Assembly: GCF_003568865.1 (NCBI RefSeq)
Contig: NZ_CP031115.1
Span: 1,736,001 to 1,800,000 of the forward strand
Source: Rubrobacter indicoceani
Lineage (GTDB): Bacteria; Actinomycetota; Rubrobacteria; Rubrobacterales; Rubrobacteraceae
Reading direction: 5' to 3'
DNA length: 64,000 nucleotides
Shown piece by piece: positions 1-63,095 of the stretch (position 1 is its first letter; every line of letters starts with the position of its first letter). A program made the position numbers and the translations under genes. The notes under the pieces were generated by a model. The model searched no databases. It was not told the DNA's origin and saw only the letters and a list, made by a program, of their open reading frames with translations.

Positions 1-30
1 TCCGCCCCTGTTCCGGTGAGGGCTTCGTCT

Positions 31-49
31 GCGGCCCGGCGTGGGCCGC
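31..49. other. GC-rich hairpin in left-edge intergenic sequence
   Basis: Perfect 7-bp inverted repeat GCGGCCC (31-37) and GGGCCGC (43-49) with a 5-nt loop and no T-tract. It may be part of the 3' end of a transcript that lies outside the window. No coding region is convincing in bases 1-281. Confidence 0.25.
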
Positions 50-183
50 GGGCCGGAGCGAAGATCCGTTTTCTAAACACGCCGAAAAACGACCCTCTGA
101 CGGAAAACCTTCACGTTTCTGTTCTCCGTAACGGCGGTATGCAGATAAATCGTCGTGTTTCGCAAAAGAGCCCCACCTCCGAA

Positions 184-228
184 TGAAAAACTTTTTCAGA
201 TGCATGAAAGTCTTGCCGCTTCTATAAT
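184..228 (+). promoter_or_regulatory. Palindrome and -10 box upstream of the alcohol dehydrogenase
   Basis: Bases 184-198 form a perfect 7-1-7 palindrome, TGAAAAA-C-TTTTTCA. A consensus TATAAT lies at 223-228, about 54 bp before the ATG of the dehydrogenase. No good -35 box sits 17 bp upstream of the TATAAT, which would fit an activator-dependent or otherwise regulated promoter. The AT-rich palindrome stands out in GC-rich DNA and is a plausible operator. Which protein would bind is unknown. Confidence 0.4.
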
Positions 229-281
229 TCCGGGTGTTGTCGGCATGAGGAGCCGACGTTGATCGGGAAAGAGAGGAAGGC

Positions 282-56354: not shown

Positions 56355-57335
56355 CTAGAGCACCCGAAGGGTGGCGCTTCCGTCGGCGGTCGCCCTTAGC
56401 CTTCCCCGGCCACCGAGCGGGAACGTAAACGTCGGGGTCGTGTGACCGAAGCTGGCATCGGCCACTACGGGGATTTCGCTCAGCTCCGGTTTGGCGTGGA
56501 CTATGCCGTCGAGAACGTCGGGGTCCATCTGGGAGTCGCGCTGGAAGCGTCCGATAACCAGGCCGCTCACGTCCCCGAAGCCGGGCTGCATCACGAGCGC
56601 CTGAAGTTCGCGGTCGAAGTGCTGCGGCCCGGTCTCGTTGTCGGCTTCGATCATCAGGATAGAGCCGCGAAGGTCCGGCAGAAAGCCTGTCCCGAAGAGA
56701 AGCGCGAGCGTCCCGAGGTGCCCCCCGACAAGCCGTCCTTCGGCCTCGCCTCTGTTCAGGATACGGTAACCCTCGTTCGGCTCGAAGAGGCGACGGTCCT
56801 GGTTGTCGTGCCAGAGGTCGTCCGACCAGTGATCCGCCGGACGGATCTCGTACCCTTCACCCGACATCACGGCCTTTTCTAGGTATTCCGTTGTGTACTC
56901 GAGGCCGTCACGCATCCCGAGCGACGAGAAATGCGGCCCGTAGTACGTCACCAGGTCGGCCTTCGCCAGCATCGCGTTGTGCAGCGCGGTGATATCCGAG
57001 AAGCCGCAGAACACCTTCGGGGTCTCGCGGATAAGGTCAAAGTCGAGGCGCGGCAGCAACTGGTTTGAGCTGTAGCCGCCGAGCACGGTCATCACCCCGC
57101 TCACGCCGGGATCGAGAAACGCCGCGTGGATGTCCGAGACCCGCGATTCGACGGGCGAGGAATAGAAAAGGTCTATCTCCTCGACGTGAGCTGCAAAAGA
57201 AACCCTCAGCCCGAACGCCGCGAGCCGCTCTTCTGCGAGCTTGCGCTGGTCCTCAGCGATAAACGAGAGGCTCGTGGCCGGGGCAACGACGCGCACCTCG
57301 TCGCCGGGCTTCAGCTTCGGCGGGACGGTCGGCAT
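56355..57335 (-). CDS. LD-carboxypeptidase-family (S66, MccF-like) peptidase
   Basis: A 326-residue serine peptidase. LKPGDEVRVVAPATSLSF at the N-terminus, the nucleophile region FCGFSDITALHNAMLAK (GxSD), and GHLGTLALLFGT and FGHTTPTFTFPLGGRGRL at the end are typical of the S66/MccF group. Members trim muropeptides or cleave microcin C-like nucleotide peptides. Its ATG follows directly on the stop of the upstream dehydrogenase gene. Confidence 0.87.
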   Translation of the reverse strand: MPTVPPKLKPGDEVRVVAPATSLSFIAEDQRKLAEERLAAFGLRVSFAAHVEEIDLFYSSPVESRVSDIHAAFLDPGVSGVMTVLGGYSSNQLLPRLDFDLIRETPKVFCGFSDITALHNAMLAKADLVTYYGPHFSSLGMRDGLEYTTEYLEKAVMSGEGYEIRPADHWSDDLWHDNQDRRLFEPNEGYRILNRGEAEGRLVGGHLGTLALLFGTGFLPDLRGSILMIEADNETGPQHFDRELQALVMQPGFGDVSGLVIGRFQRDSQMDPDVLDGIVHAKPELSEIPVVADASFGHTTPTFTFPLGGRGRLRATADGSATLRVL

Positions 57336-58355
57336 CTAGTAGGCCCTCTTCAGGATGGCGAGGGCGCGGTCTTCCTGCCCCTCGTACTCGCTTGCGATGG
57401 CTTCGAGGTCGGACTCCGGCACGTCGAACTCGGAGATGCTGTTCGGCAGGCCGAGCTCAAGGACAAGCGACGCCACCCGCCCGTCCGGTTCACCGCCGAG
57501 CGCATCCGAGAGCGCCCGCCAGCGCCGGGGTTCGATATCGTCTTCAGCGAGCCCGAGCGACGGCGCGAGCGTGATGCACGACGTAACGCCGTGCGGTATC
57601 CCGTAGCTCGCCCCGAGCCGCTTGCCGAGGTTGTGCGAGAGGCCCATCGGGTTGTTGGCCGGCGCGAAGTACGAAAGCCACGCCGCCACCTGAAGCTCCC
57701 CGCGAACCTCTATATCGTCGGGCCGGGCTCTGCTCTGCGGCAGCAGCTGCATCAGGCGCGACATGCCTTCCAGCACCGTTACATCCGTTACCGGATGCGG
57801 ACCGCCGTAGAGGTAGCCTTCCACGGCGTGGTCCAGGGCACGAATCCCGGTCGAGAGCCAGAGCTTCTCGGGGGTATGGACCGTCATCTGCGGGTCGTAG
57901 ATCACGGCCTCCGGCACGGCCCGCCGGTCCACGAACCCGGCCTTCCGGCCCCTGTTGTTCGTCACCCCGACGAGGTGCGCAAGCTCCGCCACCGAAAGAG
58001 TAGTCGGCACCGCGACCTGCGCCACGTAGCCGAGCTCTCTGGAGACGGCCTTGGTTCCATCTATAACGCTCCCGCCCCCGACGGAGACGAGCAGGTCCGC
58101 CCCGGCGGCGAGCTTCGCGGCCTCCTTTACCGATGCGGCGGGCGTGTGCTGGCTTATACCCGCGCAGGTTCCCGAGTGCTTCCCGCCGAGCAGGCCCTCG
58201 ACCCTTCGCACGAGGTCGGTCTCTTCGTTAAGCGACCTGCCCGTTACGACGAAGGCCTTCTCCCGCCCCTCCGACTCGTCCTTCAGCTTGTCGAGGCTCC
58301 CCGGCCCGAAGTGAACCCGGCGGGTCCGGAGAGCTTCGTGAGTTCCTTTATCCAT
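57336..58355 (-). CDS. Iron-type alcohol dehydrogenase, maleylacetate reductase-like
   Basis: A 339-residue group III dehydrogenase. NAD motif VSVGGGSVIDGTKA, VAVPTTLSVAELAHLVGVTN, and His-rich metal region SHNLGKRLGASYGIPHGVTSC. The HAVEGY segment (ALDHAVEGYLYGG) is typical. Closest by eye to maleylacetate reductases, which act after hydroxyquinol or hydroquinone ring cleavage; the nearby MhqO-like dioxygenase makes this attractive but unproven. Confidence 0.82.
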   Translation of the reverse strand: MDKGTHEALRTRRVHFGPGSLDKLKDESEGREKAFVVTGRSLNEETDLVRRVEGLLGGKHSGTCAGISQHTPAASVKEAAKLAAGADLLVSVGGGSVIDGTKAVSRELGYVAQVAVPTTLSVAELAHLVGVTNNRGRKAGFVDRRAVPEAVIYDPQMTVHTPEKLWLSTGIRALDHAVEGYLYGGPHPVTDVTVLEGMSRLMQLLPQSRARPDDIEVRGELQVAAWLSYFAPANNPMGLSHNLGKRLGASYGIPHGVTSCITLAPSLGLAEDDIEPRRWRALSDALGGEPDGRVASLVLELGLPNSISEFDVPESDLEAIASEYEGQEDRALAILKRAY

Positions 58356-58433
58356 GAGGCGGATTATAGGGTGGTTTCTATGGAAGACCCCGGCTGGGAA
58401 AACCCCGGGGACCCGAGCGACTCCCCAGAACCC

Positions 58434-59162
58434 TCAGGAGACGAGAATCACGTCGCAGGAGACGTGGTCGGTGACGAATCGGGCCGTGTGTCCGAGGTGA
58501 ACGTGCATCAGGCCGCCGTCTTTGCGGTCCGGCGGCGGCTTGTGGGCCTCGACGGGGTCGCCGCCTTCCGGGCTGGAGAGCGCGTAGGCGTGGACGCTCC
58601 CGCCCCTGCGCGACCCGTACACCTCGACCGTCGCGCCTTCGGCGAAGGCCCGTTCTATCGCCTCGCCCCGGTGCGGCGGAAACCTGACCTCGACGGGTTC
58701 CGGGCCGTCGCCCGTCCTGAGAAAGAGCCCGTCCCGGTCACCGGCGTGGTTTGTCTTCCAGCCGGAGATCGTCCCGGTCAGGTTCACCGAGACTTCGGGT
58801 CCGGTGTTGCCGCGTCCGATCAGGACGGCGTCGAAGCCTTCGTCCCGGACAAGCCCCGCCAGTTCTTCCTCCGGCCTGCCCGTGAGGGTCCGGCCCGTCG
58901 CCGCGACTCCGGGCCCTGAACGGGCGAGCAACTCCACCGCGCGCTTCACGGTCTCTTCGGCGGTCTCTTCAGCGGTCGGGCTGAGCTCCTCCTCCCGAGG
59001 GCGGCGACCGAGCAGACCGCGCACCAGGAAACCATAGCCCTTCGGGGCGCGCTCGTCCACCGCGCAGACGACCACGACCTCGGAGGCCCCCGTCAGGTAC
59101 CTCGCCGCGTTCCGGGTCATACGTTCGGCGTCCGACGGGTCAACGCAGAGCAGGCATTTCAT
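58434..59162 (-). CDS. Universal stress protein with an inserted OB-like module
   Basis: A 242-residue protein. Residues 1-120 form a UspA-like N-terminal part (KCLLCVDPSD, FDAVLIGRGNTG) and residues 222-242 (HLGHTARFVTDHVSCDVILV) match the last helix and strand of UspA. The normal nine-residue gap of the G2XG9XG(S/T) nucleotide motif is replaced by about 100 residues (121-221) containing GTISGWKTNHAGDRDGLFL and EVRFPPHRG, a pattern I associate with small OB-like domains. Function unknown; likely a stress or nucleotide-binding protein. Confidence 0.72.
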   Translation of the reverse strand: MKCLLCVDPSDAERMTRNAARYLTGASEVVVVCAVDERAPKGYGFLVRGLLGRRPREEELSPTAEETAEETVKRAVELLARSGPGVAATGRTLTGRPEEELAGLVRDEGFDAVLIGRGNTGPEVSVNLTGTISGWKTNHAGDRDGLFLRTGDGPEPVEVRFPPHRGEAIERAFAEGATVEVYGSRRGGSVHAYALSSPEGGDPVEAHKPPPDRKDGGLMHVHLGHTARFVTDHVSCDVILVS

Positions 59163-59194: not shown

Positions 59195-60481
59195 TTAGCC
59201 CCCGAAAAGCCTGAGCGAAACCCAGAGACCGAAGACCGCCGAAAGCAGGATCGGCGGGGTCGAGATCAGGCCGATCTTCAGGTAGTCGAGCGCCCCGACC
59301 TCCACCCCGCGACCGCGCACGATGCTCAGCCAGATAAGCGTCGCGAGCGAACCTACGATCGTCAGGTTCGGGCCGACGTTCGTCCCTATCAGGGCCGCGT
59401 ACACTACGCCGAAGTCCCCGTCCCCCACGATGGACCCCGCGCCGTTTACGACGAGCAGCGTCATCGGGACGTTGTTGACGACGTTTGAGCCGAGCGCGGC
59501 CCCGGTCGCAACGCCAAGCACCGCGAGAAACCCGTCCCCGCCGATGGCGGCCATCCCCGCCCCGACAAACGCCGTGAGGCCCGCATCCTCAGCCCCGCGC
59601 ACGACCACGAACAGCCCGACAACAAGAACGAACAGCCCCCATGAAATATCCCCTGCAAGCTCCCCGAACCGCATCCAGCCGAGCGCGACCGCCAGAAGCG
59701 CGACCACCGCCCCGCCGACCAGCGCGGCCAGCCCGATCGAAAACCCGAGAACCGGAGAGAGGAAAAACGCCGCCAGAACGCCCCCGACCCCGACCGCCGC
59801 AAGCCGGAAAAACGGGCGGTTCTCCGCCTCCGGCGGCTCGGTCTGCTCGTAGTAGCCGTTGAGATCCCCCCGGAAGATAAAGAAGAACACCGCCACGTTG
59901 GCCGCAACGGCGAGAACGGCGGGCAGGAACATCACCATCCCGAACCGGGCGAAGTCAAGGTCGAAGGCATTGTAGGCCAGCAGGTTCGTGAGGTTGGATA
60001 CGGGCAGGAAAAGCGACGCCGTGTTCGCGGTATACGTACAGGCAAAGACAAACGGCAGCGGACGCAGCCGCAGCTTCACGACCATCCCGTAGACGATGGG
60101 CGTCAGGACTATCGCCGTTGCGTCGAGCGAGAGAACCGCCGTAACAACGGTCCCCACAAGAAAGACCATGAGGTACAGACCGCGAACGCTCCCACGCCCG
60201 GCCCTTGCGGAAAGCGCGGCGGCCCAGCTGAAGAACCCGGCCTTCTCGGCGGCGGCGGAGAGGGCCATCATCCCGAGCAGCAGGAGAAGCGCGTCGTGCG
60301 TCTCCCAGAGGATCTCACCGACCTCGCGCACGGAGACAAGCCCCGCCACGACGGCGAGGGTGCCGCCGAGAGCCGCCCAGACCGACTCCCCGATGTCCTT
60401 TGGGCGGGTGAGTATCAGGGCGAGCGTCCCGAAAAGGATTACCCCCGCAACCACGCCCGTCGCTGTCCCACCGTCCAGCAT
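59195..60481 (-). CDS. ArsB/NhaD-family ion transporter
   Basis: A 428-residue ion-transporter-superfamily permease with about 11-12 helices. SLDATAIVLTPIVYGMVVKL, NTASLFLPVSNLTNLLAYNAF, and ATGAALGSNVVNNVPMTLLV followed by ALIGTNVGPNLTIVGSLATLIW are the diagnostic repeats seen in ArsB. It may export arsenite; other anions or Na+/H+ exchange are possible. No arsR or arsC is adjacent. Confidence 0.83.
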   Translation of the reverse strand: MLDGGTATGVVAGVILFGTLALILTRPKDIGESVWAALGGTLAVVAGLVSVREVGEILWETHDALLLLLGMMALSAAAEKAGFFSWAAALSARAGRGSVRGLYLMVFLVGTVVTAVLSLDATAIVLTPIVYGMVVKLRLRPLPFVFACTYTANTASLFLPVSNLTNLLAYNAFDLDFARFGMVMFLPAVLAVAANVAVFFFIFRGDLNGYYEQTEPPEAENRPFFRLAAVGVGGVLAAFFLSPVLGFSIGLAALVGGAVVALLAVALGWMRFGELAGDISWGLFVLVVGLFVVVRGAEDAGLTAFVGAGMAAIGGDGFLAVLGVATGAALGSNVVNNVPMTLLVVNGAGSIVGDGDFGVVYAALIGTNVGPNLTIVGSLATLIWLSIVRGRGVEVGALDYLKIGLISTPPILLSAVFGLWVSLRLFGG

Positions 60482-60552: not shown

Positions 60553-61896
60553 GTGGCCGAGCAGCGCGACATAGAGGAGCAGCGCAGGACGCGCCGGCAG
60601 CGCATCCGCGCCCGCATTCAGAGCCGTCCCCACCTCCGACCGCACGTCTTCGGCTACCTGACGGAAGAGAAGGAGTCCCTGCGACAGGGCTTCGCCGCGC
60701 TCTTTATCTCGTCGGTCGGGGAGCTTGTGGCCGGGGTCGTTCTGGCGAGCATAACCAACACGCTGGAAGAACTCATCGGTCTTGCGATCCTTATCCCGGC
60801 GGCCATAGCCATGCGGGGTGCGATCTTCGGCGCGATGGGCAGCCGCCTCTCGACGGCCATACACACCGGCCTCTTCGAGCTGAACTTCCGTCGCGGAACG
60901 CTGGCCGAGAACGTGCAGGCCGCCGTTGCCCTCTCGCTCGTGTCGAGCATCTTCCTCGCCTTTCTGGCCCGGTACCTCTCCGGGTTGCTGGGCATCGAGA
61001 CCAGCCTCACGATAGTGGACTACGTTATCATCTCGACCATCGCCGGGCTTCTCGCCGGGGCGCTGCTGCTCGGGATCACGCTCCTCCTCACCCGCCTGAG
61101 CGTCCGGCGCGAGTGGGACATGGACAACATCGTGGCCCCGATACTCACCGCCGCCGGAGATATCCTGACGCTCCCGGCCCTGGTCCTTGCAACCTACCTT
61201 ATAGGGATACCGGTCTTCTCCGTTTCGTTCTCGGGGGTGCTCGTCGCGGTGGCGGCGGGCGCGCTGTACCTCGGCCTGCGCTACGGCGCGCCGGGACTCA
61301 GGCGCATCCTGCGCGAGAGCCTCCCGATACTGGCCTTAAACGGTTTCGTCATCATCCTCGTGGGGATGGCCCTCGAAGACCGGCTGGATCAGTTCGTCGC
61401 GTTCCCGGCGCTTTTGATCCTGCTCCCGGCCTTTCTTCAGGAGGGCGGCGCGCTCGGGGGCATTCTGGCGAGTCGGCTCTCGTCCAAGATCCACCTCGGC
61501 CTTCTTGAGGTGCGGGCTTTTCCGCAGCTTGCGGCCTTCAGGGACTTCACCCTGATCTACATCTTCGCCGTCGGGGTCTTTCTCTTTATCGGGGGGGCCT
61601 CGCACCTTATAGCCGAAGGCCTCGCCGCGACCCTGAGCCCCGACCTCCTTGCCTCGCTCGGCCTCGACGGCGAAACGGTCAGCCCCGGGTTCTTCGCCAT
61701 GCTCGGCATCAGCGCGCTCGCCGGCCTGATAGCGACCACGGCGTCGGTAGTCGCGGCGTACTACGGTTCGACGGTCAGCTACCGGCTCGGCCTCGACCCG
61801 GACACCTACGGCATACCGGTAATCACGGCGGCGGTGGACCTGCTCGGCTTCCTGAGCCTTATAATCGCCCTTATAATATTCGGATTGGCGGGATAG
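60553..61896 (+). CDS. MgtE/SLC41-like divalent-cation transporter (two membrane domains)
   Basis: A 447-residue membrane protein with two homologous MgtE-type membrane domains of about five helices each, preceded by 45 basic/polar residues. Domain 1 has LIGLAILIPAAIAMRGAIFGAMGSRL and domain 2 FPALLILLPAFLQEGGALGGILASRL, with the paired PVITAAVDLLGFLSL near the end. The cytoplasmic N and CBS domains of standard MgtE are missing. GTG start. The next gene, 5 bp downstream, is a likely cytoplasmic regulatory partner. Confidence 0.82.
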   Translation: MAEQRDIEEQRRTRRQRIRARIQSRPHLRPHVFGYLTEEKESLRQGFAALFISSVGELVAGVVLASITNTLEELIGLAILIPAAIAMRGAIFGAMGSRLSTAIHTGLFELNFRRGTLAENVQAAVALSLVSSIFLAFLARYLSGLLGIETSLTIVDYVIISTIAGLLAGALLLGITLLLTRLSVRREWDMDNIVAPILTAAGDILTLPALVLATYLIGIPVFSVSFSGVLVAVAAGALYLGLRYGAPGLRRILRESLPILALNGFVIILVGMALEDRLDQFVAFPALLILLPAFLQEGGALGGILASRLSSKIHLGLLEVRAFPQLAAFRDFTLIYIFAVGVFLFIGGASHLIAEGLAATLSPDLLASLGLDGETVSPGFFAMLGISALAGLIATTASVVAAYYGSTVSYRLGLDPDTYGIPVITAAVDLLGFLSLIIALIIFGLAG

Positions 61897-61901
61897 CGAA
61901 C

Positions 61902-63095
61902 ATGGCACGAAAACAGCGCAACCTCAAGGACATGCTGGCGGAGGCGAAAAACACCTCCGAGCTCATGGTAGACCTCGCTTACGCCGCGATCTTCTACGAC
62001 TCCGAAGATATCTCCGAGGAGGTCTTCCGGCTTGAATCTCGCCTCAACGAGCTTGTCTACGACATGCGGACGCTCGCGATACTGGCCGCCCGTTCCCCCG
62101 CCGACGCCGAGCAGATGGCCGGTATCCTGCAGGTTGTTCAGGACATAGAGAAGATAGGCAACGCCGCCTACGACATCGCCAAGATAGTCGTCAAGGAACT
62201 CGGCATCCCGCCGGAGCTCCTGCACGATATCCCGGAGGCCGAGGAGATACCGGCCCGCGTCCGCATCCACCCCGAAAGCGAGCTCGACGGGCGTTCGCTT
62301 GAAGAGGTGGACCTCGCGGTGGAGACGGGGATGCGCCCTATCGCCATCCGCTCCGAGCAGGACTGGCACTACCATCCCGAGGACAACCACGTTCTGCGCG
62401 AGGGCGACGTGATGTTCCTGCAGGGCCCGCCGGAGGGCGTAGCGGAGCTTCGCCGGCTCGCCGGGGCGCGCCCGATGCAGCGGATGCCCGGCGACGACGA
62501 CCTCGGCGGTCAGCTCTCGGAGCTTGAGCGGGCCGTGGACATCGTTATCGAGATGAAGAACATCTCGGAGGTGGCGGTGGGGCTTGCGTACTCCGCGCTT
62601 CTCTACGACGACGCGGGTCTTGCGCGGGAAGTAGTCGCCATCGAGGGCGAGATGGACGACATGCGCTACCGGCTGGAGCGCTGGGTTCTGCTCGCGGCCA
62701 AGCACGTCGAGGACGCCGGGAGGCTTCGGGGGATGCTTCACCTCGCCATCGCCTCCGAGACCATCGCCGACTGCGCAAAAGAGATGGTCTGGATGATCGA
62801 ACGCGGCGACGATGTCCACCCCGTCCTCTCCGCCGCCGTCGGTGAATCAGACGAGCTCGTCGTGAAGGTCAACGTCGCCCCCGACTCCCCGGCGGACGGC
62901 AGGACGATCATGGACCTGTCTCTGGAGACGGAGACGGGGATGTTCCCGCTGGCGGTGAACCGGGGCGGCCGCTGGACGTACCGCCCGCGCGACAATTATG
63001 TTTTGCGCGGCGACGACGCGCTGCTCTTTACGGGCGCACCCGAGGGCTTCGAGGTTCTCTCGGAGATGTTCGGGCAGGTTTCGGGGGCGGATTGA
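61902..63095 (+). CDS. Duplicated PhoU-like / RCK_C regulatory protein
   Basis: A 397-residue soluble protein made of two tandem copies of a PhoU-like helical domain plus RCK_C (TrkA-C) domain. Helical parts: NTSELMVDLAYAAIFYD (17-33) and NISEVAVGLAYSALLYD (220-236). RCK_C parts: DGRSLEEVDLAVETGMRPIAI (129-149) and DGRTIMDLSLETETGMFPLAV (332-352), each ending in a REGD or RGDD turn. RCK_C domains bind small ligands or ions and gate transporters. It starts 5 bp after the MgtE-like gene, so it probably regulates it. Confidence 0.85.
   Translation: MARKQRNLKDMLAEAKNTSELMVDLAYAAIFYDSEDISEEVFRLESRLNELVYDMRTLAILAARSPADAEQMAGILQVVQDIEKIGNAAYDIAKIVVKELGIPPELLHDIPEAEEIPARVRIHPESELDGRSLEEVDLAVETGMRPIAIRSEQDWHYHPEDNHVLREGDVMFLQGPPEGVAELRRLAGARPMQRMPGDDDLGGQLSELERAVDIVIEMKNISEVAVGLAYSALLYDDAGLAREVVAIEGEMDDMRYRLERWVLLAAKHVEDAGRLRGMLHLAIASETIADCAKEMVWMIERGDDVHPVLSAAVGESDELVVKVNVAPDSPADGRTIMDLSLETETGMFPLAVNRGGRWTYRPRDNYVLRGDDALLFTGAPEGFEVLSEMFGQVSGAD

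What the first reader, a model, noticed from the sequence alone, without database searches (positions are those of the whole stretch)
58434..59162. Universal stress protein split by a roughly 100-residue inserted module
The UspA nucleotide motif G2XG9XG(S/T) is interrupted exactly in the nine-residue gap. The insert has a DGxFL...VRFPPHxG pattern typical, as I remember it, of a small beta-barrel domain. Insertion of a folded module into the nucleotide loop would be a new way to couple ligand sensing to a Usp.
Basis: partly seen in the sequence, partly recalled or inferred. Interest (0 to 1): 0.6.

Follow-up and report, generated by a model that had tools for sequence, protein, structure and literature searches.

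The report
Stress protein split by OB domain
A universal stress protein in a Rubrobacter-type bacterium has a second small folded domain, an OB-fold barrel, built into the middle of it, and its gene sits right behind a membrane transporter gene in every relative found, which suggests that it helps to control that transporter.

Summary
The gene lies on the minus strand (58434-59162, 242 aa). Residues 1-121 and 222-242 are the two halves of one Usp domain: joining the flanks raises the Usp score from 14-26 to 28-43 bits in 5 of 5 orthologs tested. Residues 122-212 are an inserted five-stranded barrel, predicted as an OB-fold in two AlphaFold models. It is homologous to an unnamed OB module found in proteobacterial two-module proteins. 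It is no artefact: the full architecture is kept in 8 of 39 genomes of the class, in 4 genera. In all 8 the gene directly follows an ArsB/CitMHS-type transporter gene, in two otherwise different neighbourhoods. The nucleotide motif is degenerate (G-R-G ... G-H, invariant), so ATP binding is doubtful. Best reading: a cytosolic Usp-type partner of that transporter, comparable to TeaD of TeaABC, with the OB module as ligand-sensing or docking part. The architecture is well supported; the function is inferred. A beta-hairpin at the same site in AF0826 is a small precedent (PMC3673472, passages). Verdict: new variant of a known kind.

The parts
58434..59162 (-). usp-OB gene (242 aa plus stop)
58800..59162 (-). 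first part of the Usp domain, residues 1-121 (beta1 to beta4), with the invariant stretch DERA..GY......GLLGR at residues 36-53
   Evidence: Pfam Usp residues 2-118; model strands and helices; invariant columns
58527..58799 (-). inserted OB-fold module, residues 122-212
   Evidence: strands 124-137, 143-149, 157-160, helix 163-172, strands 178-186, 189-196; OB chains aligned over 121-201; profile match to proteobacterial OB module
58500..58526 (-). linker, residues 213-221, low model confidence
   Evidence: pLDDT under 50 for 213-233
58437..58499 (-). last helix and strand of the Usp domain, residues 222-242
   Evidence: joined-flank test; 13 invariant of 22 residues in 221-242
58809..58817 (-). 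G116-R-G118, first part of the degenerate nucleotide motif
   Evidence: invariant in 8 orthologs
58488..58493 (-). G224-H225, last part of the motif; His replaces the usual Ser/Thr
   Evidence: invariant in 8 orthologs
59195..60481 (-). ArsB/CitMHS-type transporter gene, 32 bases upstream, same strand, probable operon partner
   Evidence: Pfam ArsB 165.7 bits, CitMHS 148.8 bits; directly upstream in 8 of 8 genomes
60553..61896 (+). MgtE-like divalent cation transporter gene, divergent neighbour (context only)
   Evidence: Pfam MgtE; neighbour also in L013 and L015

Best explanation
A single Usp (alpha/beta, Rossmann-like) domain carries a whole OB-fold module in the loop between beta4 and its last helix, the loop that in other Usps holds the ribose and phosphates of ATP. 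The protein has no signal sequence or membrane segment that I can see by eye and is probably made together with the transporter encoded just upstream. I think it is the cytosolic regulatory partner of that transporter, as TeaD is of TeaABC: the Usp part forms the dimer and the contact surface, and the OB module binds a ligand or docks on the transporter and changes the shape of the loop where a nucleotide would sit. Shown here: the split Usp, the OB-type insert by sequence homology and by prediction, its conservation, and the tight pairing with the transporter gene. Inferred: physical contact, direction of control, what the OB module binds, and whether any nucleotide is bound.
For: Usp: Pfam hit residues 2-118; joined flanks raise Usp bits 23.5 to 43.4, 14.4 to 31.6, 18.8 to 35.5, 16.4 to 28.2, 25.6 to 42.6, 5 of 5 tested; structural alignment to TeaD 3hgm_C Z 11.2, rmsd 2.6, 103 aligned, spanning model 1..239, and Z 11.9, rmsd 2.5, 103 aligned, spanning 1..231 in the ortholog model. 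OB: SSB 4dam_A Z 10.2, rmsd 3.1, 81 aligned over 121..201; TiaS OB domain and SSBs again in the ortholog model; insert profile against the proteobacterial OB module: probability 99.4, E 1.6e-21, 30% identity, against 0.3 for the Usp half as control. Conservation: 8 of 39 class genomes. Pairing: in 8 of 8 the gene lies 17-99 bases after the transporter stop on the same strand, counted from the aligned Met, and in the 12 locus pairs between the two neighbourhood types no other gene is shared at over 150 bits. Usps as transporter regulators: TeaD deletion potentiates transport and ATP promotes TeaD oligomerisation (PMC8280820, passage); Rv2623 with Rv1747, UspC with KdpD/KdpE (PMC5549992, passage).
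Against: The transporter also occurs in 4 genomes of the class without usp-OB, and nearby ORFs there show no Usp by eye, so the transporter does not always need it. The 4 genomes of each neighbourhood type are related, so the 8 pairings are nearer to two independent cases. Model confidence is moderate (mean pLDDT 73.1 and 72.5, pTM 0.52 and 0.56), and the C-terminal rejoining segment is under 50. The nucleotide motif is degenerate. The OB module in G000/G001 is less constrained (dN 0.297, dS 0.507) than the Usp half (0.232, 0.71). No interaction was measured.
Confidence: 0.5

Rival explanations
1. The OB module binds RNA or single-stranded DNA, and the Usp part is a stress-linked dimeriser of a nucleic-acid-binding protein.
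For: The nearest solved folds are SSB, PriB, tRNA-synthetase anticodon domains and TiaS; weak sub-threshold Pfam match to tRNA_anti-codon in one ortholog insert (13.8 bits, cut-off 27).
Against: OB folds of many functions look alike. The homologous proteobacterial modules sit in proteins of which one type begins with a signal-like, proline-rich leader (by eye), so probably outside the cytoplasm. The gene pairs with a transporter, not with nucleic acid genes.
Confidence: 0.15
2. The insert is a structural or docking decoration in a Usp that has lost nucleotide binding; it senses nothing and only adds a protein contact surface.
For: Ser/Thr of the motif is His in 8 of 8, G-2X-G is G-X-G in 8 of 8, and the Asp after beta1 is Glu in 4 of 8.
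Against: Usps with degenerate motifs, TeaD among them, still bind ATP (PMC3673472, passage). The loop residues are invariant rather than drifting.
Confidence: 0.25
3. The protein is a divalent-cation or metal-complex sensor of the transporter, with invariant His residues H191, H207, H225, H233 and Cys C6, C236 near the OB-Usp junction.
For: 5 of 8 His are invariant against 59 of 242 residues in all (one-sided p 0.02); H191 and H207 are not in the proteobacterial OB modules. Mg transporter families lie near the pair in both neighbourhoods: MgtE-like and CorA.
Against: The His test was chosen after seeing the data. Metal transporters are common genes. No coordinates were at hand to test geometry, and the segment is modelled with low confidence.
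Confidence: 0.15
4. Assembly or frameshift artefact joining two genes.
For: None found.
Against: Same architecture, open frame, in 8 genomes of 4 genera; C-terminal half completes the Usp profile.
Confidence: 0.01

Closest known systems
TeaD, universal stress protein of the TRAP transporter TeaABC (PDB 3hgm)
   Same: Closest or second-closest Usp fold in both models; acts with a transporter; partly degenerate ATP motif (PMC3673472, passage).
   Different: No inserted domain; partner is a TRAP transporter, not ArsB/CitMHS type; 18-19% identity in the structural alignments.
AF0826 of Archaeoglobus fulgidus (PDB 3qtb, 6hcd)
   Same: Extra strands inserted between beta4 and beta5 of a Usp, the same loop (PMC3673472, passages).
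   Different: Only a beta-hairpin there, not a folded domain.
Unnamed two-OB-module proteins of proteobacteria (for example L037 3803-4534, L038 3815-4564)
   Same: Module homologous to the insert, with the DG..L.DGT.V.FPPH core.
   Different: Two modules per protein, no Usp, gene near a histidine kinase and a sigma-54 regulator.
SSB, PriB and other OB-fold proteins
   Same: Barrel topology.
   Different: No significant sequence relation found: Pfam OB hit below cut-off in one ortholog; PDB profile search gave no SSB or other OB protein that I recognise.

Membership tests
Universal stress protein (PF00582) | Score over the Pfam gathering cut-off | tested here: met
   29.6 bits against 24 for the whole protein; 43.4 with the insert left out. 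The six-frame genome search gave 21.5, below cut-off.
Universal stress protein (PF00582) | Complete alpha/beta domain including last helix and strand | tested here: met
   Joined-flank gain in 5 of 5; Usp chains aligned across 1..239 and 1..231; model confidence low in the rejoining segment.
ATP-binding Usp subgroup | G-2X-G-9X-G(S/T) motif | tested here: not met
   G-R-G, then about 105 residues, then G-H, invariant in 8 of 8.
ATP-binding Usp subgroup | Binds ATP or AMP | not testable with these tools
   Needs purified protein.
OB-fold | Five-stranded barrel with a helix between strands 3 and 4 | tested here: met
   Predicted order E-E-E-H-E-E in both models; OB chains lead the matches for this part. 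Prediction only.
Unnamed proteobacterial OB module | Profile homology over the whole module | tested here: met
   80 columns, probability 99.4, E 1.6e-21, control 0.3.
TeaD-like transporter regulator | Gene next to a transporter gene | tested here: met
   8 of 8.
TeaD-like transporter regulator | Alters transport activity | not testable with these tools
   Needs deletion and transport assay.
ArsB arsenite pump (neighbour gene) | Over the NCBIfam ArsB cut-offs | tested here: not met
   247.7 against 457, 204.4 against 760, 202.9 against 415 bits; Pfam ArsB and CitMHS both over cut-off.

The most novel reading that the evidence does not exclude
A nested allosteric regulator: an OB module placed inside the phosphate loop of a Usp reads a small ligand, perhaps a divalent cation or its complex, and by moving that loop controls nucleotide binding, Usp dimer form and so the co-encoded transporter. 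This would be the first Usp that I know of with a sensory domain built into its nucleotide site.
Probability: 0.25. Interest if true: 0.65.

Novelty: new variant of a known kind. Interest (0 to 1): 0.42.

Why it matters
How Usps pass on a signal is little understood. A family in which a separate folded module interrupts the nucleotide loop, always encoded with one transporter in the genomes found, gives a natural case in which sensing part, nucleotide site and output can be taken apart. It also gives a first lead on an unnamed OB module that recurs in proteobacteria next to two-component systems.

Tried and rejected
Artefact or frameshift: rejected by eight intact orthologs. A wider spread of the architecture: the first genome-contig scan with the single protein found nothing; the second, with the alignment, gave 4 loci, three on Rubrobacter or Rubrobacteraceae contigs and one on a contig of an unnamed actinobacterium; viral contigs none; plasmids and phages none with the whole protein. 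Insert profiles in the phylum: 8 of 296 genomes and 9 of 396 with the wider profile, the ninth a 33-position partial match that I did not follow. So no free-standing copy of the module was seen in the phylum sample; the first look there scored only 14-18 candidates per genome. Insert-less close relatives: the Usp-half profile matched 6 of 149 genomes at E 1e-9, all usp-OB genes themselves, so the ancestor without the insert was not found. One search listed 11 of 41 genomes; three of these (G029, G009, G031), and a second match in G002, are partial matches starting in the Usp half and were left out of the ortholog count.

PDB search with the insert profile gave only chance-like rows (ribosomal uS3 fragments and others). 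NCBIfam gave nothing for the protein or the insert. Transporter tree: the seven usp-OB-linked transporters form two branches next to the unlinked ones, least changes 2, so one gain is not shown; the eighth (G013) was left out because its gene is split in two frames. An arsenite role for the transporter: below all NCBIfam ArsB cut-offs, so left open. Papers: no paper held 'universal stress protein', 'OB-fold' and 'insertion' together; two papers held 'universal stress protein' and 'OB fold', both by title unrelated (listing only); listings showed nothing on this architecture; the domain-insertion survey PMC13114784 has no mention of Usp or OB (find only). That is a search of one open-access library, not proof of absence.

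Full report
The reading frame is on the minus strand, 58434-59162 including the stop, 242 residues. The long plus-strand frame over the same place (57126-58919) is taken to be an accident of the high G+C content: the minus-strand protein has the Pfam hit and the orthologs. The window lies in a genome of 3.08 Mb in three contigs; of four orthologs on named contigs two are titled Rubrobacter sp., one Rubrobacteraceae and one Actinobacteria bacterium, so the genome is very probably of that group.

The Usp domain is real and split. Pfam Usp matches residues 2-118 at 29.6 bits, cut-off 24. If residues 222-242 really are the missing end, the score must rise when the insert is left out. It does, in 5 of 5 orthologs tested (of 8, two of which are identical in sequence): 23.5 to 43.4, 14.4 to 31.6, 18.8 to 35.5, 16.4 to 28.2 and 25.6 to 42.6 bits, the match then reaching profile position 139 or 140 of 141. 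This is the strongest evidence for a nested insertion rather than an end-to-end fusion.

The insert is predicted as an OB-fold. AlphaFold on the window protein with its orthologs gives strand, strand, strand, helix, strand, strand for residues 124-196, at pLDDT 76-93 by ten-residue block. A second model, of the ortholog on L020, gives the same order. Foldseek and VIA-align place two separate sets of solved structures on each model: Usps over the outer parts (TeaD 3hgm_C, Z 11.2, rmsd 2.6, 103 aligned, 1..239; in the second model TTHA0350 3ab7_A, Z 12.2, rmsd 1.8, 96 aligned, and TeaD Z 11.9, rmsd 2.5, 103 aligned) and SSB, PriB, TiaS and tRNA-synthetase OB domains over about 121-205 (4dam_A, Z 10.2, rmsd 3.1, 81 aligned; second model 7f5y_B, Z 9.1, rmsd 3.8, 80 aligned).

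The insert has relatives elsewhere by sequence. A tblastn of one ortholog's insert against plasmids matched 19 records, all proteobacteria by organism name, best E 1e-5. I read six of the 19 regions. The five that carry annotation hold proteins of 226-249 residues with two such modules; in all five a HAMP histidine kinase and a sigma-54 regulator gene are near, and in L037, L038 and L041 a second, shorter two-module protein follows. Profile against profile, seven insert sequences and nine proteobacterial modules align over 80 columns with probability 99.4 and E 1.6e-21, against 0.3 for the Usp half as control. Pfam has no hit over its cut-off for the module, and NCBIfam none for the insert.

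The architecture is conserved but narrow. Full-length orthologs occur in 8 of 39 genomes of the class, in 4 genera, with 43-68% identity to the window protein for the seven others. The insert profile found the same 8 in 296 genomes of the phylum. The Usp half has no close relative without the insert in 149 genomes. Partial matches were not counted (see Tried and rejected). dN is below dS for the Usp half, the OB module and the C-terminal part in the four non-identical pairs compared; the fifth pair is identical. In G000/G001 the OB module is less constrained than the Usp half.

The nucleotide loop is unusual. Where typical Usps have G-2X-G-9X-G(S/T) (PMC3673472, passages), all 8 orthologs have G116-R-G118 and, after the insert, G224-H225. 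The Asp after beta1 is Asp in 4 and Glu in 4. The same paper says that Usps with partly degenerate motifs, TeaD included, still bind ATP, so binding here is doubtful but not excluded. It also reports a beta-hairpin between beta4 and beta5 of AF0826, and a plain loop there in all other structures then known: a small precedent for extra structure at this site.

The gene keeps one partner. In 8 of 8 genomes usp-OB lies 17-99 bases after the stop of an ArsB/CitMHS-type transporter gene on the same strand, counted from the aligned Met (in G013 the transporter is split in two frames). The 8 fall into two neighbourhoods: G000, G001, G013 and G021 (Fe-dependent alcohol dehydrogenase, and an MgtE-like transporter where the contig reaches) and G002, G011, G014 and G022 (other genes, a CorA-like transporter among them). 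Between the two only the pair is shared at over 150 bits, in 12 locus pairs; in two of the twelve even the Usp-OB match fell under that line. The same transporter is found in four further genomes without usp-OB. The transporter tree puts the linked ones in two branches and does not show a single gain.

From this I take usp-OB to be a cytosolic regulatory partner of the transporter. Usps are known to act on transporters: deletion of TeaD potentiates ectoine transport and ATP promotes its oligomerisation (PMC8280820, passage; the original paper is not held), and Rv2623 and UspC are cited as further cases (PMC5549992, passage). The OB module in the phosphate loop is well placed to couple ligand or partner binding to the nucleotide site; this step is inference. 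Invariant His residues around the junction (5 of 8 His invariant against 59 of 242 residues, p 0.02, chosen after seeing the data) and Mg transporter families nearby in both neighbourhoods make a cation ligand a fair guess and no more.

Novelty: both parts are known kinds of fold, and Usps that regulate transporters are known; an OB module inside the Usp nucleotide loop was not found in the papers searched. I call it a new variant of a known kind, interest 0.42.

Noticed in passing
L037 815-5092, L038 833-5236, L041 739-5132, L042 1028-4633, L040 3815-8120: Uncharacterised proteobacterial proteins with two OB modules, one type with a signal-like proline-rich leader, lie near a HAMP histidine kinase and a sigma-54 regulator gene in 5 of 5 annotated regions read; no Pfam family covers the ones tested. 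Possibly a conserved signalling cassette of unknown role.
   Followed up: partly
window 60553-63095: A protein with PhoU and TrkA-C domains, two matched stretches of each (61902-63095), follows an MgtE-like divalent cation transporter gene (60553-61896) on the same strand; both are also found side by side in G001 and G013.
   Followed up: partly
L015 3272-4560: The transporter gene of G013 is split in two overlapping frames, a recent frameshift or an assembly error.
   Followed up: no
L062 4606-4959, L063 3981-4334, L060 3326-3703, L061 852-1226: Where the transporter occurs without usp-OB, a small gene of 117-125 codons lies directly before it in 4 of 4; no Pfam match for the one tested (L062); by eye it resembles a DNA-binding regulator.
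   Followed up: partly
window 59004-59057 (residues 36-53): The stretch DERA..GY......GLLGR is invariant in all 8 orthologs although the models give it low confidence; it may be a partner-binding loop.
   Followed up: no
L014 2895-2993: The 99-base gap between transporter and usp-OB in G021 holds, by eye, an imperfect repeat of GTTCTCGG-like units not seen in the other gaps.
   Followed up: no
L073 (G095): A 33-position match to the OB profile inside a 659-codon frame in another family of the phylum.
   Followed up: no
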